Below are positions 33-12,689 of a DNA stretch of 12,784 nucleotides, piece by piece. The position numbers were made by a program, and so were the translations under genes. The stretch spans positions 1-12,784 of the forward strand of contig CABJAJ010000010.1 in the NCBI GenBank assembly GCA_902363575.1, given 5' to 3'. The DNA is from Rikenellaceae bacterium (GTDB lineage: Bacteria; Bacteroidota; Bacteroidia; Bacteroidales; Rikenellaceae). The notes below the pieces were generated by a model that had not been told where the DNA came from, did no database searches, and was given only the letters and a program-made list of their open reading frames with translations. Within the stretch, counting starts at the first letter, position 1, and every line of letters starts with the position of its first letter.

Positions 33-117
33 GGAGAGATGGCAGAGTGGTCGATTGCGGCGGTCTTGAAAACCGTTGAACCGCAAGGTTCCGGGGGTTC
101 GAATCCCTCTTTCTCCG
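33..117 (+). tRNA. tRNA-Ser (anticodon UGA)
   Basis: A type II tRNA can be folded. The acceptor stem pairs 33-39 with 110-116, the anticodon loop is 65-71 with anticodon TGA at 67-69, the long variable arm has a GAACC/GGTTC stem, and the T-loop TTCGAAT (98-104) sits on a five-pair stem. The discriminator is G117, as expected for serine. CCA is not encoded; the following bases are CAA. One acceptor pair is G38-T111, a G-U wobble. The 3' end is shared with the attachment site, so this part may come from the integrated element rather than the original chromosome. Confidence 0.96.
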
Positions 118-120
118 CAA
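106..120. repeat. Left attachment site copy (attL) in the tRNA-Ser 3' end
   Basis: CCTCTTTCTCCGCAA matches 12675-12689 (CCTCTCTCTCCGCAA) with one T/C difference. Extending left to GGTTC (96-100 versus 12665-12669) gives 20 of 25 identities overall. This is the standard footprint of a tyrosine integrase that inserts in a tRNA 3' end and restores the gene. Which side of the T/C difference the crossover lies on cannot be decided from one integrated copy. Confidence 0.85.
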
Positions 121-343: not shown

Positions 344-1243
344 CTATTCATATATTCCTCTTTTGTAATTCATTAGATATTGGGTAAAAGTCTTGCCTGT
401 TTCTTTTTTGAAAAAACGCATGAGGTGACTGGGGTCGGAAAAGTGGAACTCGTCTGCCAGTTGGCTCACATTCAGATTGGAGAACAGTAGCTCATTTTTC
501 AGCTCTTCCAAAAGACGTTGCTTGAGTAAGTGAATGGCTGATACACCAAATTGCGCCATGACAGAATTATTCAAGGTGATACGACTTACCCGAAGCATAT
601 CAGCATATTCTTGAACGCGCTGTGTCGTTCGGATATGTTTTTCGAGTAAGTCCTTGAATTTGAATGCGTAATTGTTTTTTGGCACTTCGACAGGTAGACG
701 ATAAGTTTGAGCGTATGCCCGGTTGATAATTACCAGTAGATAATAAAGCACTGACACAATGAGGTTGTAAGTGTCTACCACAGGATGTTGTAGTTCTTGT
801 TTTATCTTTTTTAAGAGGCGCATATATTCCGTCAGCTCCTCCGGCTCGGCAAACAAGTAGGGCGGTGTATCAGTCTGATAATAATACAACAGCCGATATA
901 CGAAGAACTTGTCAGCAATGAACGTGCGCATAAAGTCTTCGCGGAAAATAAGAAAAGTGTAATCTAGTTCTACCTCGTTCACGTGCCATTCCTGTTGCTG
1001 GTGCGGCGACAAAAGCAGCACCATACCATCCCGTAACTCCACTTTTCGGAAGTTCAGCAACAAATATCCATTGGCACGACGAAAGAAATAGAAGCTGAAA
1101 AAATCTGTCTTAAACGCCTTATGCTCGGTCAAGACACCACAGATGTCCTTGCTTTCGCCTGTGTTAATGTAGAAATCTACGCCACATTGCGTTTTATTGA
1201 ACGGAACGCTTACAAGTCTTTTGGGATTGATTATAGCTTTCAT
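344..1243 (-). CDS. AraC-family transcriptional regulator
   Basis: The 299-residue protein starts at MKAIINPKRL. Residues about 20-180 form an N-terminal sensing region of the cupin-like type seen in this family. About 195-295 is a double helix-turn-helix of the AraC/XylS class, with a recognisable second half (NVSQLADEFHFSDPSHLMRFF, then KKETGKTFTQY). The frame is open for 63 codons upstream, but those would encode a lysine- and phenylalanine-rich stretch running into the divergent gene, so ATG at 1243 is preferred; AAGAG lies just before it. A TATATTTG -7 box (1273-1266) lies upstream. The gene is divergent from the metallo-hydrolase/cupin/radical-SAM operon and is probably its regulator. 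The effector cannot be read from sequence. Confidence 0.88.
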   Translation of the reverse strand: MKAIINPKRLVSVPFNKTQCGVDFYINTGESKDICGVLTEHKAFKTDFFSFYFFRRANGYLLLNFRKVELRDGMVLLLSPHQQQEWHVNEVELDYTFLIFREDFMRTFIADKFFVYRLLYYYQTDTPPYLFAEPEELTEYMRLLKKIKQELQHPVVDTYNLIVSVLYYLLVIINRAYAQTYRLPVEVPKNNYAFKFKDLLEKHIRTTQRVQEYADMLRVSRITLNNSVMAQFGVSAIHLLKQRLLEELKNELLFSNLNVSQLADEFHFSDPSHLMRFFKKETGKTFTQYLMNYKRGIYE

Positions 1244-1379
1244 CACTCTTGTTTTTTGCTTTCTGCAAATATACATCATTCTTTTATCAAAATGGCATAT
1301 ATTCCTGTTTTTAAGGCATAGAGACATTGGGATATCCTTTCGAACTTTGTACCCGAAAAATAATACAAAACATAACATC
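1244..1379. promoter_or_regulatory. Divergent promoter region between the AraC gene and the cargo operon
   Basis: On the minus strand TATATTTG (CAAATATA at 1266-1273) fits the Bacteroidota -7 consensus TAnnTTTG and lies about 22 bases before the AraC start. A TTTG (CAAA at 1288-1291) is 14 bases further up, closer than usual for the -33 box. GGCATA occurs at 1294-1299 and 1315-1320, exactly 21 bases apart, the spacing at which AraC-type proteins bind direct half-sites. For the plus-strand operon only a weak box is seen (GAACTTTG, about 1340-1347), as might fit an activator-dependent promoter. Confidence 0.5.
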
Positions 1380-2159
1380 ATGAACGAAAAAGCAATTATT
1401 CGGTTGGTACGCAGTGCCACCTTGAAAATCAACTATGCAGGACATACCATTCTTATTGACCCCGTATTTGCCGACAAAGGAACCCTGCAATCAGCTCTCG
1501 GTGTATATAAGAATCCGAGGGTACATCTCGTAATGCCTATTAGCGACATTACTGAAGGTGTTGATATGGTACTGCTCACCCACAACCACATCGACCATTA
1601 CGAACCAAGTGTAAAGCAGCATTTGCCGAAAGACATTCCTTTCTACACCCAGCCACAAGATAAGGCCGCCATCCTGAAAGATGGTTTCTCAAATGTAGAA
1701 GCGATTGAAGAGAGCATAACCTTAGGTCATCTGACCATCCACCGTGCTATTGGCCATCACGGTTTCGGTCAGATAGGCCAGATGATGGGACCTGTTTCGG
1801 GCTATGTGCTGATGTCCGAAGGGCTTCCGACTATTTATATCATGGGCGATTGCAAATGGGAAGAATGTACTCTTGCTACCGTGGAAAAGTATCGTCCTAA
1901 TTATATTGTGGTGAACAGTGGCGGTGCGGTATTCCCCGAATTCTCTAAGACGGACGGTTGTATCATCCCCAATGAACAGGAAGTAATGGCGATGCTTGAC
2001 ACACTCCCCCCACACATCAAGCTGATTACCGTACACATGGATGCCATCGATCATTGCCAGACCACCCGTGCCATCCTTCGCAACGAAGCTCGCCATCACG
2101 GGACGGATATGAGCCGACTGATTATACCGGAAGACGGAGAAAGCATAACACTTAAATAA
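1380..2159 (+). CDS. MBL-fold metal-dependent hydrolase (UlaG-like)
   Basis: A 259-residue cytosolic protein with no signal peptide. It begins like UlaG-type hydrolases (RSATLKINYAGHTILIDP, residues 11-28). It carries the metal motif HNHIDH at 68-73, followed by candidate ligands H126/H127, D157 in MGDC, and H219/H225. It belongs to the metallo-beta-lactamase superfamily, whose members hydrolyse lactones, phosphodiesters and other substrates; nothing points to antibiotic hydrolysis, and there is no export signal as true beta-lactamases have. The frame is open further upstream (to 1197), but those codons overlap the AraC gene, so MNEKAIIRL at 1380 is the start. It is the first gene of the cargo operon, with 33 bases to the cupin gene. 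Substrate unknown. Confidence 0.88.
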   Translation: MNEKAIIRLVRSATLKINYAGHTILIDPVFADKGTLQSALGVYKNPRVHLVMPISDITEGVDMVLLTHNHIDHYEPSVKQHLPKDIPFYTQPQDKAAILKDGFSNVEAIEESITLGHLTIHRAIGHHGFGQIGQMMGPVSGYVLMSEGLPTIYIMGDCKWEECTLATVEKYRPNYIVVNSGGAVFPEFSKTDGCIIPNEQEVMAMLDTLPPHIKLITVHMDAIDHCQTTRAILRNEARHHGTDMSRLIIPEDGESITLK

Positions 2160-2192
2160 CTGTATAAACAATCATTTCAAAATATTAGAAAG

Positions 2193-2657
2193 ATGAAAAA
2201 GATTAGGAAAATCGCGGTAGAACAGAATTTCGCCGCGATCAGTGTCGGTAAGTTGAATGAACTGAATGAATACGAACTTCAGCTTGGCCCGGATGTGAAA
2301 ATTCCCGGAAAAGTATTCTGCAGCACCGCTCTCGGAACTACGGGAAGCGAGTTTTCTTTCCAGTCATTCGCCCCGGGTACAGAAACCGGATTTCTGCATA
2401 GTCACAAGAGTCATGAGGAACTTTATTTTTTCCTCTCCGGTAAAGGTGAATTTCAAGTAGACGGAACAGTGTTCCCAGTGGAAGAAGGTAGCGTTGTCAG
2501 GGTATCTCCTGCAGGAAAACGAAGTGTCCGTAACAACGGAACGACTCCGCTCCTCATGCTCTGCATACAATATTGCAGCAATACATTCTCACAGGAGGAT
2601 GCCACTGACGGAATCATACTGAAAGAACCGGTAAAATGGAAAGTCTCTCCGAAATGA
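2193..2657 (+). CDS. Small cupin-domain protein
   Basis: The 154-residue single-domain cupin has motif 1 around residues 66-83 (HSHKSHEELYFFLSG: H69, H71 and E75/E76 as likely metal ligands). Motif 2 around 99-115 is GSVVRVSPAGKRSVRNN. The usual motif-2 histidine is replaced (S111), so metal binding may be weaker or different from that of an active dioxygenase or isomerase. The start ATG at 2193 follows the purine-rich TTAGAAAG. The stop codon overlaps an ATG of the next gene (ATGA at 2654-2657). Cupins of this size act as small-molecule-binding proteins, isomerases or dioxygenases. The tight link to two radical-SAM genes suggests a part in the same pathway, but the substrate cannot be inferred. 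Confidence 0.85.
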   Translation: MKKIRKIAVEQNFAAISVGKLNELNEYELQLGPDVKIPGKVFCSTALGTTGSEFSFQSFAPGTETGFLHSHKSHEELYFFLSGKGEFQVDGTVFPVEEGSVVRVSPAGKRSVRNNGTTPLLMLCIQYCSNTFSQEDATDGIILKEPVKWKVSPK

Positions 2658-3349
2658 TTCTAAAAAGGAACTCTAAGCAGATGACTATCTGTATAAAATC
2701 CCTGATAAAGAATATGAACATAGTGGTAGGCTGCTCCATCGGGTGCAGCTACTGCTATGCCCGTAACAACTGCCGCCGCTTCCATATTACGGACGACTTC
2801 TCCGTACCGGAATATATGGTGCGAAAGCTGCGTATCATCGACACGCCCAAGCCTCACGTATGGCTGATGACCGGAATGAGCGATTTCTCCGATTGGAAGC
2901 CTGAATGGAATGCGGAAATATTCAGACGAATGAAAAGCAATCCGCAACACGCTTATATATTCCTTACGAAATGTCCGGACAAGATCAGTTTCTCTACAGA
3001 TGACGAGAATGTATGGATGGGCGTGACCGTCACGCGCAATTCCGAAAAAAAGCGGCTAGACGATTTGAAAAGAAATATCAAGGCCAAGCACTACCATGTC
3101 ACTTTCGAACCTATTTTCGATGAAATCGGCGATATAGATTTCGAGGGTATCGACTGGATTGTCATAGGTACGGAGACCGGACATCGGAAAGGCAAAGTGG
3201 ATTCCCGTCCCGAATGGGTGCTTCACATTGCCGACCAAGCCCAAACACAGGGCGTCCCCGTGTTTATGAAAGAGGATTTGCTGCCTATAATGGGCAAAGA
3301 AAGGATGATTCAGGAACTGCCGGAACAATTTACAAAACGCTTACAATGA
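2654..3349 (+). CDS. Radical SAM protein, probable 'mobile pair' protein A (DUF5131/Gp37-Gp68-like)
   Basis: With the start at 2654 the protein has 231 residues. C27, C31 and C34 (GCSIGCSYCYARNN) form the CxxxCxxC site for the 4Fe-4S cluster that cleaves S-adenosylmethionine. Later blocks recall the phage Gp37/Gp68 (DUF5131) family: TGMSDFSDW (73-81), IFLTKCP (102-108), WMGVTV (121-126), FEPIFDEIGDIDFEGIDWIV (151-170), GTETG (172-176) and GVPVFMKEDL (200-209). It also fits the 'radical SAM mobile pair protein A' group, known as a tandem partner of a second radical-SAM protein on mobile DNA. Alternative starts are 2636, and 2681, which has AAGGA upstream. ATG 2654 was chosen for its 4-base overlap with the cupin stop. 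It overlaps the next gene by ATGA as well. Reaction unknown. Confidence 0.8.
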   Translation: MILKRNSKQMTICIKSLIKNMNIVVGCSIGCSYCYARNNCRRFHITDDFSVPEYMVRKLRIIDTPKPHVWLMTGMSDFSDWKPEWNAEIFRRMKSNPQHAYIFLTKCPDKISFSTDDENVWMGVTVTRNSEKKRLDDLKRNIKAKHYHVTFEPIFDEIGDIDFEGIDWIVIGTETGHRKGKVDSRPEWVLHIADQAQTQGVPVFMKEDLLPIMGKERMIQELPEQFTKRLQ

Positions 3350-4221
3350 ATACCGAAATAATCAAAGAAATAGACGTACAGAGCGTTATGACCAAATCCT
3401 CACTGCCGGTCGGAGGATATTCGGTCAACCCTTACGTGGGCTGTCCCCACGCCTGTAAGTATTGCTACGCATCGTTTATGAAACGATTCACCGGGCATAC
3501 AGAACCGTGGGGTGCATTTCTGGACGTGAAGAACTGGAAACCGATAGCCAATCCGCACAAATATGACGGAGAGCGCATTGTGATAGGTTCCGTGACGGAT
3601 GGTTACAACCCGTATGAGGAGCAATTTTGCCGTACCCACAGGCTGCTCGAAGAGCTGCGTGGGAGCAACGCCGAGATTATGATATGCACTAAGTCCGACC
3701 TTGTCCTGCGCGACCTCGACCTGTTGAAGCGTTTTCCCAAAGTAACGGTGTCATGGTCGGTCAATACGCTTGACGAGCGGTTTCGTACGGATATGGACAA
3801 TGCCGTGAGCATAGAACGTCGTCTGAACGCAATGCGTCAGGTCTATGAGGCGGGCATCCGTACCGTGTGTTTTGTATCGCCCATATTCCCCGGAATAACC
3901 GATATGAAGGCGATTATCGAGAAAGTGAAAGGATATGCCGATTTGATATGGCTCGAAAACCTGAATCTGCGCGGGCAGTTCAAGGGAGGGATAATGACGT
4001 ATATCCGTGAGAAGCATCCCGACCTCTTTCCGTTATACGAAGAAATATACAACAAAAAGAGGCTTGATTACTGGCAGGCATTGGAACAGGACATTTCCCA
4101 ATACGCCAAGGCACAGGGGTTTCCATATAGAATAAATGATTTGCCTTACGGGCGCTCGGAAAAAGGCAAGCCGGTTATCGTAAATTATTTCTACCACGAA
4201 AAGATACGATTGACTAAATGA
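3346..4221 (+). CDS. Radical SAM protein, probable 'mobile pair' protein B (SplB-like)
   Basis: A 291-residue protein. C33, C37 and C40 (NPYVGCPHACKYCYASF) form the CxxxCxxC cluster site. GSVTDGYNPYEEQ (81-93) and the spacing of the following strands resemble the spore-photoproduct-lyase-like radical-SAM group (SplB-like), where 'radical SAM mobile pair protein B' belongs. The frame is open further upstream (to 3214), but ATG 3346, overlapping the stop of protein A as ATGA, is clearly the start and implies translational coupling. It is the last gene of the operon. The resemblance to a DNA-repair lyase does not show that this protein acts on DNA. The obligate pairing suggests two steps on one substrate or a two-enzyme complex. 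Confidence 0.82.
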   Translation: MNTEIIKEIDVQSVMTKSSLPVGGYSVNPYVGCPHACKYCYASFMKRFTGHTEPWGAFLDVKNWKPIANPHKYDGERIVIGSVTDGYNPYEEQFCRTHRLLEELRGSNAEIMICTKSDLVLRDLDLLKRFPKVTVSWSVNTLDERFRTDMDNAVSIERRLNAMRQVYEAGIRTVCFVSPIFPGITDMKAIIEKVKGYADLIWLENLNLRGQFKGGIMTYIREKHPDLFPLYEEIYNKKRLDYWQALEQDISQYAKAQGFPYRINDLPYGRSEKGKPVIVNYFYHEKIRLTK

Positions 4222-4331
4222 GGGAAAGATATTGACAATATGGTATATTAATAGTGAATAAGATATTCTTTTATTGCTTATTTTACTTTAGAATAGTTAG
4301 ACAACTTAGATTTTGTACTATATATTACGAT

Positions 4332-4362
4332 AGAAGTACAATCCATGATGAATTGTACTTCT
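4332..4362. terminator. Hairpin between convergent genes
   Basis: AGAAGTACAAT (4332-4342) pairs perfectly with ATTGTACTTCT (4352-4362): an 11-bp stem and 9-base loop between the 3' ends of the radical-SAM B gene (plus) and the relaxase gene (minus). There is no real T tract on either side, so it is a probable but weak bidirectional terminator. The rest of 4222-4367 is AT-rich with nothing else visible. Confidence 0.5.
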
Positions 4363-4367
4363 CTATA

Positions 4368-5771
4368 TTACATCCTGAATCCTCTGGATTTTTGTTCTTT
4401 CTGCACTGAGTTACGCAGATGCTGCTGTAACTTCTCCCATTGTTCCTTGAACCATTCGCTGATTGGCTGTTGGTTTATAGTCAGCATCAATTTATTCTTA
4501 TCGATCGGGCTTCGTTCAATTTTGAAAATTACATTTTTTGTTTCAAATCTCTGTCTATATTCTTCGGAATAGATTTTTCCACTACATCTGAGAGCTTCCT
4601 TTTTGTATAAAAGAGAATCAACCATCCCCTTGGTAAAACCAGTGACATAGCATAATTTTTCCATTCTCAGCATTTCTTTGAGCAATGGGAACCAGCATAA
4701 TGCTTTTTCGAGAATGGTATTCAATCGTGATATTTCCTTGTCTTTGGCTTCAAGTTCTTGATTGTGTATTCCTTGAAGATTACGAATTTGTCTGCCATGC
4801 TGTTCCTGTATTTGTTGTATCTGAATTTTCAATTCATCAGTAGCTTTGTCCCGTTTGGTAATTTCCTGATGTAGCTGCTCGATGTGATGTTCCAGTTCTT
4901 TCAGCTTACCGCTTCCGAAAAGAGAACCTACACTGCTGGTTATGGCTGTGGCTACATCGGTAGCTGCACTTTTGAGTTTGTCCGTACGTATCTCTGCTTT
5001 TACCTGTTTGAGTTCCTGTTCGGCAAGGCTTACCTGTTGCTCCTTGTGTCGCTTGGTTTCCTCTATACGTTGCAGTTCGGCTTTCTGCTTCTCAATGATG
5101 AAATCATTTCGTTCCAGATGCTCTTTACCTGTGACAGCTTTTGCCTGCCCACGTTCCATCAGGAGAATATCGGAAGCCAAGGTCTGCATGATTGCCATAT
5201 CTTCGTCATTGAGTTTTCGGCTCTTTCCGGTTTCGTGGTTCATCCAGTCGAATACGATATGGGCATGATAGTTCGGCTTGAACCATCTGCTTCCTATTTG
5301 AAAACTCTCTTTGTCTTCCGCTTCCGGCTGACCGTTTAGCCAATGTCCTTCGTCTTTGTGCAGGAAAATTTGTAGTGGAGTGATGCCCCAACGCTTTTGA
5401 CACTCTTCACCGAATCTGCGTACATCAGCCAGTGTGGTGTCCGGTCTGATAAGCAATACTCCTTCACGGATGGGTGAACATCCCGCCACTTTGATAATCC
5501 TTCCATTCTTTCCCTTGCGTTCCCTTTCCTTTTCCTGCATGGCACGGCCTGTCTTTTCCTTGACCATGCGTTTGATGTTCTCATAATGCGTCTGCAATTC
5601 GAGACTGCCGAAATCCGGATTTATCCACTGTTCATTATCGGCTGTGAGTTCGGGCACGATGTAGATTTTGGACTTGCCGATGTTGCGCATATACTCGGCA
5701 GTTCTTCGGTTGTGTGCCTCGCTCGATGCGATGTTGCAAGGCTTGATATGTATGCTTGATTTTGTTGCCAT
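4368..5771 (-). CDS. MobV/Pre-type relaxase (MobN-like mobilization protein)
   Basis: A 467-residue protein that would nick the element's oriT and lead the strand into a conjugation channel supplied by another element. The relaxase domain occupies about residues 1-215. It has EAHNRR at 19-23, matching the MobV first motif (HNxR), and a split histidine motif: HKDE at 138-141 and NYHAHIVFDW with H169 and H171. About 225-365 is a long charged coiled coil, and the C-terminal 100 residues are lysine-rich. Domain order and length fit NBU-type MobN proteins. The gene lies just downstream of a 280-base structured region, as expected for a relaxase beside its oriT. Start MATKSSIHIK at 5771 is preceded by purine-rich AAAGAAAAGAAG. 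Confidence 0.9.
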   Translation of the reverse strand: MATKSSIHIKPCNIASSEAHNRRTAEYMRNIGKSKIYIVPELTADNEQWINPDFGSLELQTHYENIKRMVKEKTGRAMQEKERERKGKNGRIIKVAGCSPIREGVLLIRPDTTLADVRRFGEECQKRWGITPLQIFLHKDEGHWLNGQPEAEDKESFQIGSRWFKPNYHAHIVFDWMNHETGKSRKLNDEDMAIMQTLASDILLMERGQAKAVTGKEHLERNDFIIEKQKAELQRIEETKRHKEQQVSLAEQELKQVKAEIRTDKLKSAATDVATAITSSVGSLFGSGKLKELEHHIEQLHQEITKRDKATDELKIQIQQIQEQHGRQIRNLQGIHNQELEAKDKEISRLNTILEKALCWFPLLKEMLRMEKLCYVTGFTKGMVDSLLYKKEALRCSGKIYSEEYRQRFETKNVIFKIERSPIDKNKLMLTINQQPISEWFKEQWEKLQQHLRNSVQKEQKSRGFRM

Positions 5772-6052: not shown

Positions 6053-7009
6053 CTATAACCGGAAGCCGTTCTTCTTCTCCGGTGATTGGCTGCGCACCCC
6101 TTTGGCGGACTGGAGCTGCCTTTTTCTTTCAATCTGTTTCTGTAAGTATTCGTTCAGGTCTTTGCACCCGCCATAAATCTGCGAAGCGTCCCGGATGTAT
6201 CGGTCTCTGCCGTATTCCATGCGGATTTGTTGGAGTACTTCCAGTCCTGCATGGTCGTTGTCGAAAAAGCAGTGGATGCGCTCATAGTTGCCCAGCGGAT
6301 AGAGAGCCTTGTTTATATTCGATACGGAGTTCAATACAATGTAGTCCTGCCCGTCCAATTCCGGATAATTCGGGCAGCTTTCCTGTCTCAATGTCAGAAA
6401 GGAAAGGTAGTCCATGAAACCCTCGAACACATAGCAGGTAGTCCTTGCTTTTCCCGACTGTCTGATGTGGGAGATTTCCTTGGGGGCGATGCAGCCCTTG
6501 AAATAGGGGTTACGAACCTCAAACCCACCCGAACCGTTAGGGAAGGCAATGGCAAAGTAACGCTTGCCGTTGTGGGTGTAACGGGCTTCTCTACATTCTC
6601 TTTTTGCCAGCTCCAGATTTATTCCTCTACCTTGTAAATAGGCAAGCAGGGCAGGGGAAGAAAGCGGCACGATTTCCAACTGTTGGAAACTCGGCTCCGT
6701 AAAGGACTGCTTGCGAAAAGAGAAAGAAACGGGGTGCACGTGCGGTGCCTGTTCCTCTATGCGTTTCAAAAGGTACGGCACACTGTCCGTTGCATAGAGG
6801 TGCGAAGCCAGTGCGATGATGTTGCCGCCCTTGCCAAGTGCAAAATCATACCATTGGTTCCGCTCGGTATTCACCTTGAACGATGCTTCGGTTTCTTCCC
6901 TGAACGGCGATTTGTACCAAAGATTGATGCCCTGCCGCTTCACCGGGCTATATCCCAAGCTGTGAAGATACTCTTCCAGCCTGATTTGTTTTGCTGTCTG
7001 TATATCCAT
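6053..7009 (-). CDS. DnaG-like primase with CHC2-type and Toprim domains (PrmN1-like)
   Basis: The 318-residue protein is about half the length of chromosomal DnaG and lacks the helicase-interaction domain. Residues about 22-70 resemble the CHC2 zinc-finger fold (YKSPFREE, then QWYDFALGKGGNIIALA), but the zinc cysteines are absent. The Toprim domain spans about 190-285, with EGFMD at 196-200 and the acidic pair D250/D252 in FFDNDHAG. Such primases occur in NBU elements beside the mob gene, where they are thought to help copy the element after excision or transfer. Start MDIQTAKQIR at 7009. The gene is separated from the RepA-like gene by a hairpin-rich spacer, and its stop lies in the arm of a strong stem at the edge of the oriT candidate. 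Confidence 0.88.
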   Translation of the reverse strand: MDIQTAKQIRLEEYLHSLGYSPVKRQGINLWYKSPFREETEASFKVNTERNQWYDFALGKGGNIIALASHLYATDSVPYLLKRIEEQAPHVHPVSFSFRKQSFTEPSFQQLEIVPLSSPALLAYLQGRGINLELAKRECREARYTHNGKRYFAIAFPNGSGGFEVRNPYFKGCIAPKEISHIRQSGKARTTCYVFEGFMDYLSFLTLRQESCPNYPELDGQDYIVLNSVSNINKALYPLGNYERIHCFFDNDHAGLEVLQQIRMEYGRDRYIRDASQIYGGCKDLNEYLQKQIERKRQLQSAKGVRSQSPEKKNGFRL

Positions 7010-7216: not shown

Positions 7217-8293
7217 CTAATAGTGGAAATCCGGTTCGTACCTGTACTTTCTGCCGTTTTCCTGCACTATCATCCGCTTGTTCTTTAACACTGTGATGAG
7301 TTTGACCAGCTTGTTGTCACTTAACGGAATGCCCACCAAGGCATACGATTCTTTCAGCGCCTTGCCCAGTTCCTTATACCCATACTCGTCCTGCAACGAG
7401 AATGCGGCTTCCAGAGCTATCCGGTGCTGTTGCTCGGAAATGTCCTTGCAGGCATCGAACCTTTCACCTTGGGGTCTGCCGGGTGCTTTGGTTTCTGTCT
7501 GGTAGTCCTCCATCAGTTCAGGCAATGCCCTGTCATTGATGCGGAAGGCAAACGGCTCGAAGTCCATCGCACGGATGTGCATGGCGGAAACCTTGCTTAT
7601 GTCCCCGTTGCTCTTGTCCTTTTCAACGAGCAGCACGGTTTCAGCCTTGTTGTTCAGCTCCGTGCCGATATGTCCCCTTGCGTTCTCATCCCCCTTGTTC
7701 TGATGGAGTATCGTGTGGATATGTATCTGCCTGTCGTCCGTCCACTGCATCAGCTTTGATATGATGCGTGTCGATTCACTGGGGCTGTTGATGTCATATA
7801 CCATGTCACGGATGCCGTCTATTATCACCAGACCAAGGTTTGGCGTATGGTAGATTGCCTGTTCGACAATCCTTATGCGCTGCTCCGGCGTGTACTTCCG
7901 CAGGGCAAGGAATTCAAGGTTTTCGTTGTCCCTGTCATCGGGCAGCCCTGCCATACGCATGATGCGCTCCATCACATTCAGACAGTGGTGGGGGCTTTGC
8001 TCCGTATCCACATAAAGCACTTTCCGTTTGGCTTCGGGAAGTTCAGCCGCATACCTGAGCACCGTACCGTTTTTCAATGCCGCCGCCACGATAGCCGACA
8101 CATTGAATGTCTTCTTGCTTTTGGCTTTGCCGATGGATGCGCTGAAATTTCCCAACGTGCCGATAACGGAACCTTTCACACTGAGGATTTCAGGGGCTTT
8201 CTCGTATTTTCCCGACAGGCTCAGCCGTGAGGCTTGCCAGAGGATTACCGCCTGTTCGTCCGATATTTCCCGGATGTCTTTCATATAGTCCAT
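7217..8293 (-). CDS. RepA-like AAA ATPase / hexameric helicase
   Basis: A 358-residue RecA-fold ATPase of the plasmid RepA type. The phosphate loop is GKAKSKKTF (55-63), a Walker A in which the second glycine is lysine, as in related Bacteroides proteins. YVDTEQSPHHC (94-104) and the Walker B strand LVIIDGIRD (155-163) follow, then HQNKGDENARGHIGTELNNKAE (197-218), the sensor-like loop of this family. The C-terminal third (about 275-358) is helical and basic and probably binds DNA. It would open the element's origin for the primase encoded next downstream. It starts 14 bases after the DUF3853 gene and is probably cotranscribed with it. ATG 8293 is used; ATG 8284 is possible. Confidence 0.85.
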   Translation of the reverse strand: MDYMKDIREISDEQAVILWQASRLSLSGKYEKAPEILSVKGSVIGTLGNFSASIGKAKSKKTFNVSAIVAAALKNGTVLRYAAELPEAKRKVLYVDTEQSPHHCLNVMERIMRMAGLPDDRDNENLEFLALRKYTPEQRIRIVEQAIYHTPNLGLVIIDGIRDMVYDINSPSESTRIISKLMQWTDDRQIHIHTILHQNKGDENARGHIGTELNNKAETVLLVEKDKSNGDISKVSAMHIRAMDFEPFAFRINDRALPELMEDYQTETKAPGRPQGERFDACKDISEQQHRIALEAAFSLQDEYGYKELGKALKESYALVGIPLSDNKLVKLITVLKNKRMIVQENGRKYRYEPDFHY

Positions 8294-8307: not shown

Positions 8308-8616
8308 TTACTTGCGTCCGCCTGTTTTCTTCCCTGCCAGTTCAAGGGCAAGTTCCGCGTCCACGATAATCTTGCGCCCTATCTGGGTGATGGCCTTGTC
8401 TATCTTTCCGCTTTTCTTTATGCGGTTGGCGGTAGGCAGGCTGCACCCGAACAGCTTGGCTATGCCGAGTATTCCGTACACATACTTCCTGCCTGTGTCC
8501 GTTACGGGCTGCGGCTGCGCTTCCGGCTGACCGGATGCGTGCCTGCTTAACATGATGAACTCTTCGCCTGTCATCTGCCAGACGGGTTTGGATAATAATT
8601 CTTGGATATTTGTCAT
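8308..8616 (-). CDS. DUF3853 family helix-turn-helix protein
   Basis: The 102-residue protein has a short N-terminal helix (about 1-25, MTNIQELLSKPVWQMTGEEF), a proline- and glutamine-rich linker (29-40), and a C-terminal winged-helix-like region (46-92, GILGIAKLFGCSLPTANRIK then IGRKIIVDAELALEL) of the excisionase/MerR type. I recognise it as the DUF3853 family of Bacteroidales mobile elements. In NBU1, small genes at a comparable place are needed for excision, so a role as directionality factor or as regulator of the RepA-primase-mob genes is likely but inferred. It is the first gene of the downstream core, with a clear -7 box 70 bases upstream and a terminator isolating it from the preceding unit. 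Confidence 0.85.
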   Translation of the reverse strand: MTNIQELLSKPVWQMTGEEFIMLSRHASGQPEAQPQPVTDTGRKYVYGILGIAKLFGCSLPTANRIKKSGKIDKAITQIGRKIIVDAELALELAGKKTGGRK

Positions 8617-8839: not shown

Positions 8840-9859
8840 TTATCTGAATATATGTTCCATTTCCTTGGCGAAATTCTGGTTGCTGTCACTGGGGAAATCA
8901 GAAACTGGCTCCTTGTACTTTGACTTGTAGTAGCTGTCATCAATATCCAGCAGTTTCAGTATTCCGGCTTTCCATTTGTCCCTGTCCTGTTTGGGGAGCT
9001 TTTCGCTCATGAGGAATATCAGATAACATACACGTATCTTCTCTCTCGGTTTGGTTTTCAGCTTGCAGTTGCAGGGGTGCAGGTTCATGTTGGCATAGAA
9101 ATCCGGTGCGGAAATTTCTTCGAACTGTTCTCCCACACATACCTCATGAATGAGCGAAAGTAATTTCATGCTGAAGTATTCGTGTCGTTCCGTTGTTGTT
9201 TCCTGCTGGCTGACCGGTTTGCCCGGCTCGTCCTGTCGTTTCCCGTCAGGAATGTATTTCTTCAATATATCCAGAAAAAGACAGCTTTGGCGGTATATGT
9301 CCGCACAACGGTTCTTCATATATTGGAATGCCTCATTTCTTGCAGCCTTTTGCAGGTCATAGAGTTCGTTCAGTCTGGCTTTTTCCCTGTCATATTCAGC
9401 CTTGCAGCGTTCATATTCTTTTTCTGCCTGTTTTTCCTCTTCGGCAGTATGTTCCCGGTAGCCAATGGAATCATACCTGTTGTTGGCTTCATTCAGCGGC
9501 TTGTTCAGACTTCTTGTGACATCCAGCTGGGCTTCAATTTCAAGGGAATACCTTTCCATGTGCTGATGGCAGACACGCTCTATGGCACTGTTACTTATGG
9601 GGCGTGTTTCATAAGCCTGTATGCTCTTTTCTATTTCAGTTTTCAGGCTGTTGAGTATCAGGGTGTATTGTTCTTTTTGCCTGTCAAGCACCAGTTCAAG
9701 GATGGCGGCTTCAAAAGATTTCATGTCATTGTACTGCTGACAGAAATCGGAAATGAATTTTTGCCTGTCAAAAGAAAAAGTGCTGTTGTCCATATAGTCC
9801 CTGTATATTCTGTTGAGTTCCCCGTATCGGGGAATCATCGTCTGTATATTGTCTGCCAT
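8840..9859 (-). CDS. Uncharacterised helical / coiled-coil protein
   Basis: A 339-residue protein I cannot assign to a named family. It has no signal peptide or membrane segment. Residues 1-60 contain ELNRIYRDYM and FSFDRQKFISDFCQQY. About 135-185 is a highly charged predicted coiled coil (EEEKQAEKEYERCKAEYDRE). The C-terminal third has a cysteine/lysine patch (HPCNCKLKTKPREK, 261-274) and ends in a short acidic tail. ATG 9859 is chosen over 9895: it has AGGA five bases upstream, leaves 7 bases after the nuclease stop and avoids a 29-base overlap. It is therefore the second gene of a two-gene operon with the nuclease. Similar proteins lie near the integrase in Bacteroides elements, so it may be an element gene rather than a nuclease partner. 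Confidence 0.75.
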   Translation of the reverse strand: MADNIQTMIPRYGELNRIYRDYMDNSTFSFDRQKFISDFCQQYNDMKSFEAAILELVLDRQKEQYTLILNSLKTEIEKSIQAYETRPISNSAIERVCHQHMERYSLEIEAQLDVTRSLNKPLNEANNRYDSIGYREHTAEEEKQAEKEYERCKAEYDREKARLNELYDLQKAARNEAFQYMKNRCADIYRQSCLFLDILKKYIPDGKRQDEPGKPVSQQETTTERHEYFSMKLLSLIHEVCVGEQFEEISAPDFYANMNLHPCNCKLKTKPREKIRVCYLIFLMSEKLPKQDRDKWKAGILKLLDIDDSYYKSKYKEPVSDFPSDSNQNFAKEMEHIFR

Positions 9860-9866
9860 AGGTGTC

Positions 9867-11162
9867 CTACTTTTGTCTGTTCTTTTCATTGTCAAGAAGC
9901 ATCGTCAGTTCTTCTTCCACCTGTTCTATGCTCGGCAGTGCCGATTTCAGGTTTTCCGGCACAGCCTTGCTGAGCTGATAATCGCTGATGCCGATAGGCT
10001 GGTCATAGCCGGTCAGCGCATATTGTGCGACAATCTCATCCTTGCCTTTGCACAACAGCAGCCCGATGGTCTTGTTGTCATTCTCTCCCCTAAGTTTGTC
10101 GTCCACCACATTGATGTAGAAGTTCAACTGCCCGGCGTATTCCGGTTTGAACGGGGTAGCTTTCAGTTCCACGACCACATAGGCATGGAGTTTTATGTTA
10201 TACAGGATTAGGTCGGCATAGAAATCGCTGTCGCCAATCTGGAAATGCTTCTGCCTTGCGACAAAGGCGAATCCGTTGCCCATTTCCAACAGGTAACGGG
10301 TGACGTGCTTCACCAGTTGTTCCTCTATGTCCCTTTCGTCCGCACGTTCTTTGGCTCCCGCCAAGTCAAAGATATACGGGTCTTTCAACAGGTAGTTGGC
10401 AAGGTCGCTTTGGGGCACAGGAAGCGTGGCGGTAAAATTATTGACCTTGTGGCTGTTGATTTGCCTTTCGTACAATTTGCTTTCAATCTGCGTTTTAAGA
10501 GTATTACTGCTCCAACCCATTTCCACGGATTGCTTCATATACCAGTAATCGACACCCAACGGAAGGGAACTGTTCAGCAGAATCACATGGCTTGCCCAAT
10601 TGATTCTTGCAACAGGTGATGCCAGGAACAGTTTTTCTATGTCCTCAATCGCTATTTGGTAAGCGGCAGCGACTGTTTGGGCTACATCCTGAATTTGTGC
10701 AAGAGGTTCTTGCACAATTGCAACTTCCTTGTTGTCTGAAGATTGAATTTGCGCAAGAGGCTCTTGCGCAAATGTCATATTGTTCAGGCTTTGAAGTTCA
10801 TCCGTGATTTTCTGCACACTTGGAGTAAGTAATTTCGTATCGGTTTCTATAAAACTCCGTAATGCGCCCAATGGATAGGAGCGTGCGAACTGGCACATAT
10901 AAGCCAAGTTCCTGACCGAATATCCTTTCTTTTCGGGATAACTGAACCGTATCGCCTGCGCCAGTCTCTTGATGACCTTGCCGCCCCAGCCTTGTCGGTT
11001 CTGGTGGTACAATATGTAATTGCCCATCTTCCAGTAGTGGAACAGCATCTGCGCATTGGCTGCACTGATGAGCCGGACTTGCGCCTGCTCTATTTCCGAG
11101 CCGATGGCATTGACGAAAGCCTCGAAACTTCTTTTCTCTATGTTGTTATCGTTGTTGCTCAT
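9867..11162 (-). CDS. PDDEXK nuclease domain protein (DUF1016 / YhcG-like)
   Basis: The 431-residue protein follows the YhcG/DUF1016 plan. The N-terminal domain (about 10-125) contains HYWKMGNYI and GWGGKVIKRLAQAI. A central block (about 186-230, INWASHVILLNSSLP then GWSSNTLKTQIES) is the family's 'IPWGHN...GWSR' block with changes. The C-terminal nuclease domain has D317 (YADLILYN), E332 and K334 (VVVELKA) as the D-ExK site, then QLNFYINVVDD. Between the domains (about 131-158) QEPLAQIQ is repeated with an 18-residue period; at DNA level these are two perfect palindromes. YhcG-like nucleases are often found on mobile DNA and near restriction loci; substrate unproven. TATCTTTG lies about 21 bases before ATG 11162, so the gene probably starts its own unit. 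Confidence 0.87.
   Translation of the reverse strand: MSNNDNNIEKRSFEAFVNAIGSEIEQAQVRLISAANAQMLFHYWKMGNYILYHQNRQGWGGKVIKRLAQAIRFSYPEKKGYSVRNLAYMCQFARSYPLGALRSFIETDTKLLTPSVQKITDELQSLNNMTFAQEPLAQIQSSDNKEVAIVQEPLAQIQDVAQTVAAAYQIAIEDIEKLFLASPVARINWASHVILLNSSLPLGVDYWYMKQSVEMGWSSNTLKTQIESKLYERQINSHKVNNFTATLPVPQSDLANYLLKDPYIFDLAGAKERADERDIEEQLVKHVTRYLLEMGNGFAFVARQKHFQIGDSDFYADLILYNIKLHAYVVVELKATPFKPEYAGQLNFYINVVDDKLRGENDNKTIGLLLCKGKDEIVAQYALTGYDQPIGISDYQLSKAVPENLKSALPSIEQVEEELTMLLDNEKNRQK
10695..10773. repeat. Two palindromic repeats inside the nuclease coding sequence
   Basis: TTGTGCAAGA (10695-10704) pairs with TCTTGCACAA (10708-10717). ATTTGCGCAAGA (10747-10758) pairs with TCTTGCGCAAAT (10762-10773). 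Both are perfect stems of 10 and 12 bp with 3-base loops (GGT, GGC), 54 bases apart, so the reading frame is kept and both encode EPLAQI. They differ mainly by paired, compensating changes (T-A versus C-G), so the hairpin itself seems conserved. Confidence 0.85.
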
Positions 11163-11231: not shown

Positions 11232-12515
11232 TTATAGTTGGTTGAATTTATTCATTGCATTTGCCTTAATGTCATCTGCGATGTCAATGTAAGGTTTCAT
11301 GGCTTTATAATCGCTGTGTCCCGTCCATTTCATTACAACCTGTGCCGGGATGCCGAGAGCCAAGGCATTGCAGATGAAAGTTCGTCTTCCTGCATGGGTA
11401 CTGAGCAATGCGTATTTGGGTGTCACTTCATCTATACGCTCATTTCCTTTGTAGTAGGTTTCCCGTACAGGCTCGTTGATTTCTGCGAGTTCCCCCAGTT
11501 CTTTCAAATAATCGTTCATTTTCTGATTGCTGATAACGGGCAGTGCCATGTTGTTCTCAAAGTGAATGTCCTTGTATTTTTCAAGTATGGCTTTGCTGTA
11601 TTTGTTCAGTTCAATGTTTAGGCTGTCTGCCGTTTTGACGGTAGTAACTTCTATGTGGTCGGATTTGACATCACTTCGCTTCAAGTTACGGACATCTGAA
11701 TACCTTAGACTTGTGAAACAACAGAACAGGAAAACATCCCTGACACGTTCCAGATATTGTTTGTCTTTGGGTATCTGATAATCTTTCAATCTATTCAATT
11801 CGTCCCATGTCAGAAAGATTACCTTCTTTGAGGTGGTTTTCAATTTCGGTTTAAATGTATCGTATGCAATGTTTTGATTATATCCCTTTTTGAAGCTCCA
11901 TCGCAGGAACCATTTGAGAAATCCTATCTGTTTGCCGATGGTACTGTTTCTCATGTCTTTTTTGTCACGCAGGAAGTTTACATACTCGTTTAGTCCGAAC
12001 TCATCGAAATACTCAAAAGTCACATCTTCTTTGAACTCTTTCAGGTGATTTTTTACGGCTGCAAATTTTTCGTATGTGGATTCTGTCCAGTTGTTCTGAT
12101 TGCCACATTCCTTGACAAACTCATCAAATATCTCCCAAAAACTTATTTTAGTATCTTCCTGCTGCTCCTCGTTGTTATTTTTCATTTTCAGATTGAACGC
12201 ATCTTTTAACTGTTGGGTGGTCGGCATGGTTTCCTGTACCTCAAATTCTTTGAATACGTTTTGAATTTCGGCATAGTATCTTAGCAAATCCGCATTGATT
12301 TCGGATGCGCTTTGCTTTAATTTATTGGTACATCCGTTCTTTACACGCTGCTTGTCTGCATCCCACTTGGCTATATCAATGCGGTAGCCGGTTGTAAACT
12401 CGATGCGATGGCTTGCGTATATGACACGCATACGGATGGGTACGTTCTCCACGATTGGAACGCCGTTCTTTTTGCGGCTTTCAGGTGCAAAAATGATGTT
12501 TCGTTTGATGTTCAT
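11232..12515 (-). CDS. Tyrosine recombinase / integrase (NBU-type)
   Basis: A 427-residue site-specific recombinase that would integrate and excise the element at tRNA-Ser. The N-terminal part (about 1-120) is an arm-binding-like domain of the Bacteroides type. About 125-220 is the SAM-like core-binding domain (FWEIFDEFV, then LKWFLRWSFKKGY), and about 230-420 the catalytic domain. Catalytic residues are visible: R271 (SLRYSD), K294 (TVKT), H374 and R377 (HAGRR), H400 (GHSD) and the nucleophile Y409 (KPYID). The frame extends 14 codons upstream to 12557, but MNIKRNIIF at 12515 is preferred: a -7 box overlaps the longer version, whose start would lie upstream of transcription. The protein lies next to the right end, the usual position in NBU elements. 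Confidence 0.93.
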   Translation of the reverse strand: MNIKRNIIFAPESRKKNGVPIVENVPIRMRVIYASHRIEFTTGYRIDIAKWDADKQRVKNGCTNKLKQSASEINADLLRYYAEIQNVFKEFEVQETMPTTQQLKDAFNLKMKNNNEEQQEDTKISFWEIFDEFVKECGNQNNWTESTYEKFAAVKNHLKEFKEDVTFEYFDEFGLNEYVNFLRDKKDMRNSTIGKQIGFLKWFLRWSFKKGYNQNIAYDTFKPKLKTTSKKVIFLTWDELNRLKDYQIPKDKQYLERVRDVFLFCCFTSLRYSDVRNLKRSDVKSDHIEVTTVKTADSLNIELNKYSKAILEKYKDIHFENNMALPVISNQKMNDYLKELGELAEINEPVRETYYKGNERIDEVTPKYALLSTHAGRRTFICNALALGIPAQVVMKWTGHSDYKAMKPYIDIADDIKANAMNKFNQL

Positions 12516-12519
12516 GACT

Positions 12520-12557
12520 GGGTGTATTTGAAATTCCGCACCCAAATATACACCCAA
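12520..12557. repeat. Right-end TACACCC repeats, candidate arm sites
   Basis: GGGTGTA (12520-12526), GCACCCAAA (12538-12546) and TACACCCAA (12549-12557) lie between the integrase start and the right core. The last is identical to 164-172 at the left end. They match the left cluster at 125-190 in motif. From 12558 to 12674 the DNA is AT-rich with no other feature seen. Confidence 0.45.
12543..12550 (-). promoter_or_regulatory. Candidate integrase promoter -7 box within repeat motifs
   Basis: The minus strand reads TATATTTG, an exact TAnnTTTG match, 27 bases before the chosen integrase ATG. It is flanked by GGGTG on both sides, part of the end repeats, so a protein bound there could repress the integrase gene. 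No clear -33 TTTG at the usual distance. Confidence 0.5.
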
Positions 12558-12674
12558 AAATTGAAATAGCGAGCGATATTCGATAATATTTAGATTTAAT
12601 TATGATTGTAATAAGTTGGTTATTAATAGGTATTTGCAATTGTGTGATATTTTGAGATAGCAAAGGTTCAAGAG

Positions 12675-12689
12675 CCTCTCTCTCCGCAA
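12675..12689. repeat. Right attachment site copy (attR)
   Basis: CCTCTCTCTCCGCAA repeats the tRNA-Ser 3' end at 106-120 with one difference. Here the acceptor half TCTCTCC would pair perfectly with GGAGAGA at 33-39, whereas the copy now in the tRNA gives one G-U pair. The bases to its left (GGTTCAAGAG) diverge from the tRNA T-arm, so this copy is only a tRNA fragment. Confidence 0.85.

What the first reader, a model, noticed from the sequence alone, without database searches (positions are those of the whole stretch)
344..4221. AraC-controlled MBL hydrolase, cupin and radical-SAM pair carried as cargo on a mobilizable element
Seen: four plus-strand genes in one tight unit (33-base gap, then two ATGA overlaps), divergent from an AraC regulator, set between the element's left end and its mobilization genes. 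Known: radical-SAM 'mobile pair' A and B genes occur together on mobile DNA with no reaction assigned to my knowledge; protein A resembles phage Gp37/Gp68 (DUF5131) proteins and B resembles SplB. Inferred: MBL hydrolase and cupin are working partners, making a four-enzyme inducible pathway that modifies or detoxifies a small molecule, or alters a nucleic acid or tRNA, to the benefit of element or host. It replaces the antibiotic-resistance cargo expected in an NBU element.
Basis: partly seen in the sequence, partly recalled or inferred. Interest (0 to 1): 0.78.

Follow-up and report, generated by a model that had tools for sequence, protein, structure and literature searches.

The report
Mobile radical-SAM pair gene cassette
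A small jumping DNA element of gut Bacteroides carries a switchable set of genes built around two partner radical enzymes of unknown job; the two enzymes turn up in other gut bacteria, plasmids and phage-like DNA, while the helper genes around them are swapped from place to place.

Summary
In detail: AraC (344-1243, minus) diverges from MBL, cupin, A and B (1380-4221, plus) in an NBU2-like element at tRNA-Ser. A and B are NCBIfam 'radical SAM mobile pair' A and B. The fixed four-enzyme pathway does not hold: of 95 pair loci, 22 have the MBL and 11 a cupin; others have flavin reductase, MarR, DUF3786 or no called leader, under AraC, HxlR, MarR or Rrf2 regulators. The constant unit is A+B, mostly with a local regulator. 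New here: (1) a conserved AraC operator, TTTATCAAAATGGCATA-15 bp-GGnATA, phase-locked to a TTTG box in MBL-led and A-led operons alike; the exact pattern is in 4 of 201 genomes of the nearest family, each time at this locus; (2) the cassette is 99-100% identical between two species whose element backbone genes are 69-95% identical, in a slot where sister elements carry lnu(AN2)+mef(En2); (3) both predicted folds match spore photoproduct lyase best after re-alignment (A only narrowly), and A has a nearly invariant Cys at the position of clostridial lyase C74, while B lacks both lyase donors. Best reading: an inducible detoxification or damage-reversal cassette. The architecture is well supported; the reaction is inferred.

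The parts
33..118 (+). tRNA-Ser (tga); its 3' end is the integration site
   Evidence: ARAGORN and Rfam
96..120 (.). attL-like repeat (partner 12665-12689)
   Evidence: 20 of 25, last 15 bases 14 of 15 identical
344..1243 (-). AraC-family regulator, divergent from the operon
   Evidence: HTH_18 56 bits; relatives beside the pair in many Bacteroidota loci
1283..1299 (+). AraC operator site 1, TTTATCAAAATGGCATA
   Evidence: exact in 17 of 18 distinct AraC-divergent intergenic regions, one base off in the 18th; binding not tested
1315..1320 (+). operator site 2, GGCATA, 15 bp after site 1
   Evidence: GG[CT]ATA in 16 of 18; spacing 15 bp in 17 of 18
1342..1349 (+). promoter -7-like box GAACTTTG; its TTTG starts 46 bp after site 1
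   Evidence: offset 46 in 17 of 18, 47 in one; the Bacteroidota -7 consensus is recalled
1380..2159 (+). MBL-fold metallo-hydrolase, SaxA/UlaG-like
   Evidence: Lactamase_B_2; best solved relative 6brm SaxA, 147 bits
2193..2657 (+). cupin; optional member
   Evidence: Cupin_2 52 bits; best solved relative 3cew, 66 bits
2654..3349 (+). radical SAM mobile pair protein A (DUF5131); true start perhaps 2681
   Evidence: TIGR04471, 425 bits
3346..4221 (+). radical SAM mobile pair protein B
   Evidence: TIGR04470, 584 bits
4332..4362 (.). AT-rich palindrome between the convergent ends of B and the relaxase-like gene; possible transcription end
   Evidence: folds as a hairpin, but the whole gap folds no better than shuffles (z -0.93); no terminator-scan hit; inference
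4368..5771 (-). mobilization (relaxase-like) protein of the element; the label is by context
   Evidence: no Pfam hit; 78-96% identical copies in 20 regions examined, 18 of them with a tRNA on the cargo side
6053..7009 (-). primase-like (CHC2 zinc finger, Toprim_2)
7217..8293 (-). AAA_25 ATPase
8308..8616 (-). DUF3853 small protein
11232..12557 (-). tyrosine integrase
   Evidence: Phage_integrase, Phage_int_SAM_5, Arm-DNA-bind_5
12665..12689 (.). attR-like repeat

Best explanation
The unit is a mobile, inducible 'mobile pair' cassette. Its constant core is radical-SAM proteins A and B, made together and probably acting as one two-part enzyme or two successive enzymes. An exchangeable local regulator (here AraC, bound upstream of the operon promoter) switches them on, and exchangeable accessory genes (here a SaxA-like MBL hydrolase and a captured cupin) lead or follow them. 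Most likely it answers a toxic electrophilic or redox-active compound: the accessory enzyme attacks the compound or its product, and A+B use SAM-radical chemistry to undo or remove the adduct or damage. Shown: gene content, conservation, operator sequence, modularity, mobility, cargo slot, predicted folds. Inferred: AraC binding, joint action of A and B, the stress, and the reaction.
Against: No inducer, substrate or product is known. The RrpA/RrpB scores are far below their cut-offs and may reflect only the HxlR fold. The SPL match of A barely exceeds other radical-SAM folds; Foldseek alone ranked other barrels first, none under E 0.001, and the profile match to SPL is weak (32%, failing in global mode). 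B lacks both SPL donor Cys. The literature itself calls C74(Ca) less well placed as donor (PMC5368176, passages). 25 of 95 loci have no called leader gene, so an accessory enzyme is not required. SaxA and another hydrolase of unknown role are similarly close to the MBL (147 and 120 bits). One carrier (L134) has MBL-B without A; B was not called in 3 of 95.
Confidence: 0.42

Rival explanations
1. Dedicated small-molecule pathway: MBL, cupin, A and B successively convert one compound.
For: Tight co-directional unit; MBL leads the pair throughout one clade; purifying selection on MBL.
Against: MBL in 22 and cupin in 11 of 95 pair loci; elsewhere the leader is flavin reductase, MarR, DUF3786 or none called.
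Confidence: 0.15
2. Anti-phage or inter-element defence: A+B modify nucleotides, nucleic acid or a protein to block invaders.
For: A matches PADLOC candidates PDC-M41B and M30B (107 bits); pair copies lie on prophage-like contigs and plasmids as well as this element; a candidate defence gene (YhcG) lies in the same element.
Against: Only the B component of those candidates matched; no partner among the 6 window proteins scanned. The partners that were called are metabolic or regulatory types, though only the 21 modelled families could be called.
Confidence: 0.1
3. Enzymes that install a modification (tRNA, peptide or cofactor maturation) rather than remove damage.
For: The models are also close to SuiB, RlmN, viperin and NifB.
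Against: In the window the plus-strand gaps of the unit hold only ORFs of 21 aa (1249-1314, across the operator) and 51 aa (4254-4409, running into the relaxase-like gene); short ORFs of other loci were not examined. The resistance-type slot fits stress better.
Confidence: 0.16
4. Isothiocyanate detoxification: MBL is a SaxA and the pair is an accessory, giving gut Bacteroides resistance to mustard-oil compounds.
For: Best solved relative is SaxA, with the HxHxDH motif and the HM[DE]xI[DN]HCxxTRAxLR segment shared. SaxA lies on mobile elements in other bacteria (PMC7036374, passages). Pseudomonas sax genes include a transcriptional regulator (PMC12903958, passages).
Against: Remote match; the MBL is absent from most pair loci; substrate untested.
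Confidence: 0.12

Closest known systems
Radical SAM mobile pair system (NCBIfam TIGR04470/TIGR04471, MarR regulator TIGR04472)
   Same: A and B score over both curated cut-offs; carried on mobile DNA.
   Different: AraC with a conserved operator instead of MarR; MBL and cupin added. No paper in the held library has the phrase 'radical SAM mobile pair' or both 'radical SAM' and 'DUF5131'.
Spore photoproduct lyase (SPL)
   Same: Best VIA-align match of both models; CxxxCxYCY motif with both Tyr; A has Cys at the C74(Ca) position.
   Different: No PF20903 hit in Pfam at E 0.001; B has Val and Ser/Asn/Thr/Ala at the two donor positions.
SaxA isothiocyanate hydrolase
   Same: Best solved relative of the MBL, over nearly the whole length.
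   Different: Remote; part of a radical-SAM operon; activity unknown.
NBU2-type mobilizable elements (NBU2 label recalled)
   Same: tRNA-Ser site, tyrosine integrase, mobilization block, cargo slot beside tRNA; relaxase-like protein about 87% identical to that of the six lnu(AN2)/mef(En2) carriers.
   Different: The slot holds the radical-SAM cassette, not resistance genes.

Membership tests
Radical SAM mobile pair A/B (TIGR04471/TIGR04470) | scores over both curated cut-offs | tested here: met
   425.2 against 355 and 584.1 against 410
Radical SAM mobile pair A/B (TIGR04471/TIGR04470) | A and B adjacent, on mobile DNA | tested here: met
   overlap 3346-3349; att repeats, integrase, relaxase-like gene
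Radical SAM mobile pair system with MarR (TIGR04472) | MarR-family TIGR04472 regulator beside the pair | tested here: not met
   window regulator is AraC/HTH_18; TIGR04472 hits L113's regulator with 263 bits
Spore photoproduct lyase | fold resemblance | tested here: met
Spore photoproduct lyase | hydrogen-donor Cys at the C141(Bs) or C74(Ca) position in B | tested here: not met
   profile alignment: GSVTD/GTVTD in 93 of 93 B copies; S, N, T or A 14 residues before the first cluster Cys in 92, one cut short
Spore photoproduct lyase | hydrogen-donor Cys in A | tested here: inconclusive
   Cys 14 residues before the first cluster Cys in 94 of 96 copies (71 distinct sequences), as in 7 of 10 fetched SPLs (one cut short, two distant ones without) and in S76C of 4rh0; role unproven; hhalign probability of A with SPL 32%
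Spore photoproduct lyase | match to Pfam SPL model PF20903 | tested here: not met
   not among Pfam hits of A or B at E 0.001
SaxA | MBL metal motif HxHxDH and near whole-length match | tested here: met
SaxA | hydrolysis of isothiocyanates | not testable with these tools
   needs an enzyme assay
NBU-type mobilizable element | tRNA-end att repeat, tyrosine integrase, mobilization block | tested here: met
   the definition is recalled
PADLOC PDC-M41/M30 candidates | all components of the candidate system present | tested here: inconclusive
   only the B component matched, among 6 window proteins scanned

The most novel reading that the evidence does not exclude
A and B together are a two-subunit, spore-photoproduct-lyase-like radical enzyme in which A supplies the C74-type hydrogen-donor Cys and B the larger lyase-like fold. 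It directly reverses an adduct or cross-link (most likely on nucleic acid) caused by electrophilic or redox-activated compounds, and it spreads as an inducible resistance cassette through Bacteroidota, Clostridia, plasmids and prophages of animal guts.
Probability: 0.14. Interest if true: 0.88.

Novelty: new variant of a known kind. Interest (0 to 1): 0.6.

Why it matters
NCBIfam names this pair of radical enzymes, but no function was found in our three library searches. Copies lie on this mobilizable element, on Bacteroidales plasmids including a pMMCAT, and in phage structural gene clusters. The fixed operator gives a simple reporter to find the inducer, and the conserved Cys in A gives a testable chemical hypothesis. 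If the cassette is a resistance or repair system, gut bacteria are trading a class of protection that resistance-gene surveys would not list.

Tried and rejected
Fixed four-gene pathway: rejected by the census. Operator genome scan with a wrong spacer (0 of 295 genomes): my pattern error, uninformative; redone with the right spacer. Rv2578c literature as a clue to B: 2 listings, neither read. Reactive-chlorine regulators as an analogy for AraC: search listing only, no link made. PDB sequence search for A and B: nothing credible. Plain Foldseek for A: no hit with E under 0.001. Cupin in viral contigs by a single-sequence scan: none confirmed. B as a true SPL: rejected on donor Cys. RrpA as proof of a redox sensor: weakened, since the HxlR first scored at 148 bits is a second copy 1.3 kb downstream of B in L076, and three HxlR beside the pair score 61-88 bits.

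Census limits: neighbour families were found by models built from the same loci, so other families are invisible. The 95 loci hold near-identical and probably duplicate entries (L002 and L030 look like one locus reached twice), so the 75 distinct pairs are the safer base. Four distant loci (L122-L125) were dropped before the counts (A at or below 250 bits), and L127, a second copy of a contig already in the set, was not in the neighbour rows. Several loci end near the pair (L002 lacks its AraC for that reason). Four of the 11 cupin loci (L115, L117, L118, L119) are weak cupin matches of about 60 bits. Leader genes had to lie within 100 bases, so the Rrf2 of L115 and L117 (147 bases away) and the DUF386 of L049-L051, L053 and L054 (188-219 bases) are not counted. 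The 20 cargo-slot regions were picked by me from the best matches; two show no tRNA (L166; L174, whose contig ends). The tree is a quick one with SH-aLRT only and flags L110 and L052 as long branches. The background for the Cys position is small: 1 of 20 radical-SAM proteins of three Bacteroides genomes has Cys there, B itself being one of the 20; none of the 8 non-pair DUF5131 proteins (of 15) whose motif the script could place; a first control found only 3 proteins.
Full report
What is there. The window holds a 12.6-kb mobilizable element at the 3' end of a tRNA-Ser gene (33-118). Its ends are marked by a direct repeat (96-120 and 12665-12689; the last 15 bases match at 14 positions). A tyrosine integrase lies at the right end. 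A and B exceed the NCBIfam cut-offs for radical SAM mobile pair A and B. The A-B ATGA overlap is sure. The cupin-A one depends on which start A uses: 2654 gives the overlap, while 2681, favoured by homologues, gives a 23-base gap.

Who else has it. Neighbours were called with profile models built from the same loci. Of 95 loci with A over 250 bits, 88 read A-B, 4 read B-A, and in 3 B was not called. The leader gene (within 100 bases) is flavin reductase in 19 (two more precede a MarR, one follows a Sir2-like gene), MBL in 22 (three of them MBL+cupin), MarR in 17, cupin alone in 5, patatin in 2, DUF3786 in 2, none called in 25. Regulators called: AraC 37, HxlR 31, MarR 19, Rrf2 2; five loci carry both AraC and HxlR, and 11 none. 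On 75 distinct A+B pairs a quick tree shows the MBL-led operons as one Bacteroidota clade (10 rows, SH-aLRT 98). Cupin occurs at three separated places with clear homology (L002 with MBL; L059 after B; L075, L078, L080 before B-A), and at two more with weak homology (L115/L117 and L118). Thus the pair, mostly with a local regulator, is the core, and the accessory gene is exchangeable.

Where the helpers come from. The MBL is rare: 5 of 41 related genomes have a match, 3 of them close (62-100% identity), and all 3 lie next to this AraC, although in one (L236) the locus ends before A could be seen. The cupin is common: 3331 database relatives and 12 of 41 genomes, one of them at the pair. Of 8 non-pair copies whose neighbours I looked at (of 11), 4 have a divergent HxlR regulator beside them. 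The three cupin-B-A loci also carry a divergent HxlR. So the cupin may be a captured member of an HxlR-cupin unit.

Regulation. The 18 distinct intergenic regions between a divergent AraC and the first gene (30 sequences including the window) share TTTATCAAAATGGCATA exactly in 17, with one base different in L058. GG[CT]ATA follows 15 bp later in 16; L052 and L058 have variants. A TTTG starts 46 bp after the first site in 17 of 18; L059 has one extra base in both spacings. This holds whether MBL or A is the first gene. In the window the 17-mer occurs once even with three mismatches allowed, against 0.10 expected. The exact two-site pattern occurs in 4 of 201 genomes of the nearest genome's family, zero times in the reversed control, and all 4 hits lie at AraC-MBL loci with A and/or B. 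In the viral collection the 17-mer occurs 6 times, once at such a locus. The seven loci whose AraC is convergent (L047-L051, L053, L054) lack the motif. I read it as a dedicated AraC operator; a wider regulon with degenerate sites is not excluded, and binding is inferred.

Mobility. The cassette has thus moved between diverged backbones. In 20 regions next to relatives of this relaxase-like gene, picked from the best matches, the cargo side holds this cassette in 2, lnu(AN2)+mef(En2) in 6, and other genes in 12; 18 of the 20 show a tRNA on that side (the resistance families were named on one of the six and the others match it at 99.4-100%). Relatives of A at 80-90% identity lie on 24 plasmid records; the one I opened is a pMMCAT with AraC-MBL-A-B (pMMCAT described in PMC12056005, passages). 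Other copies lie upstream of RteA/RteB-like genes (label recalled). In IMG/VR contigs MarR-A-B lies between portal and terminase genes (L113) or between a tape-measure and a minor head gene (L111), and Rrf2-cupin-A-B before a tape-measure gene (L117).

The MBL. Its only solved relatives under E 0.001 are SaxA (6brm, 147 bits) and a 'possible metal-dependent hydrolase' (3rpc, 120 bits). It shares with SaxA the HxHxDH motif and the HM[DE]xI[DN]HCxxTRAxLR segment. That makes an electrophile-detoxifying hydrolase plausible, not shown.

Regulators elsewhere. HxlR proteins beside the pair (L090, L108, L001) and beside a non-pair cupin (L224) are Pfam HxlR (81-96 bits). Their best NCBIfam matches are the redox regulators RrpA/RrpB, but at 61-88 bits for RrpA against a cut-off of 185, so a redox sensor is a hint, no more. 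The MarR beside the pair in L113 is TIGR04472, the known regulator of the mobile pair system.

Most likely working. An incoming toxic compound is sensed by AraC. AraC at 1283-1320 activates the promoter whose TTTG box lies at 1346-1349. MBL, cupin, A and B are made together. MBL, and perhaps the cupin, act on the compound or a by-product; A+B act on the damage or adduct by radical chemistry. The sensed compound is unknown; the operator step rests on conservation; the rest is inference from families, partners and the cargo slot.

Literature. In the held library 'radical SAM mobile pair' gave 0 papers, 'radical SAM' with 'DUF5131' 0, and 'radical SAM' with 'mobilizable', 'Bacteroides' and 'cupin' 0. 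NCBIfam already names the pair and a MarR regulator for it, so the core is a known but unexplained kind. The AraC/MBL/cupin version with its operator, its cargo swapping and the SPL-position Cys in A are what this work adds.

Noticed in passing
window 9867-11162: YhcG/DUF1016 nuclease-type gene in the same element, matching PADLOC candidate defence family PDC-S02 (400 bits).
   Followed up: no
window 8840-9895: ORF of 351 aa with no Pfam, NCBIfam or PADLOC family at the limits used; at 69% DNA identity the least conserved backbone gene compared with G001.
   Followed up: no
L134 about 600-720: A natural cassette with AraC, MBL and B but no A gene; MBL's stop is followed directly by B.
   Followed up: partly
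L113 6232-11508; L111 4197-11505; L117 7063-12612: The pair with MarR, or with Rrf2 and cupin, sits inside phage structural gene clusters (portal/terminase, tape measure).
   Followed up: partly
L132 4297-9087: On pMMCAT, AraC-MBL-A-B lies 15 bp upstream of a short histidine kinase gene, with a second AraC gene nearby.
   Followed up: no
L076, L081, L083, L084, L088 within 5 kb upstream of the pair: These clostridial pair loci lie beside a gene group of a Sir2-like protein (weak match, 28 bits), an Rrf2 regulator and a patatin; all but L088 also have a P-type ATPase downstream.
   Followed up: no
L224, L225, L228, L229: Divergent HxlR-cupin unit away from the pair in Bacteroidales genomes, a possible source of the captured cupin.
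   Followed up: partly
L241 3334-4206: A 5.5-kb unverified 'Bacteriophage sp.' record from human faeces carries B at 100% identity; its link to phage particles is not shown here.
   Followed up: no
L158, L159, L160, L162, L174, L176: Sister elements carry lnu(AN2)+mef(En2) in the slot that holds the cassette here.
   Followed up: yes
window 4332-4362: AT-rich palindrome between the convergent ends of B and the relaxase-like gene.
   Followed up: partly
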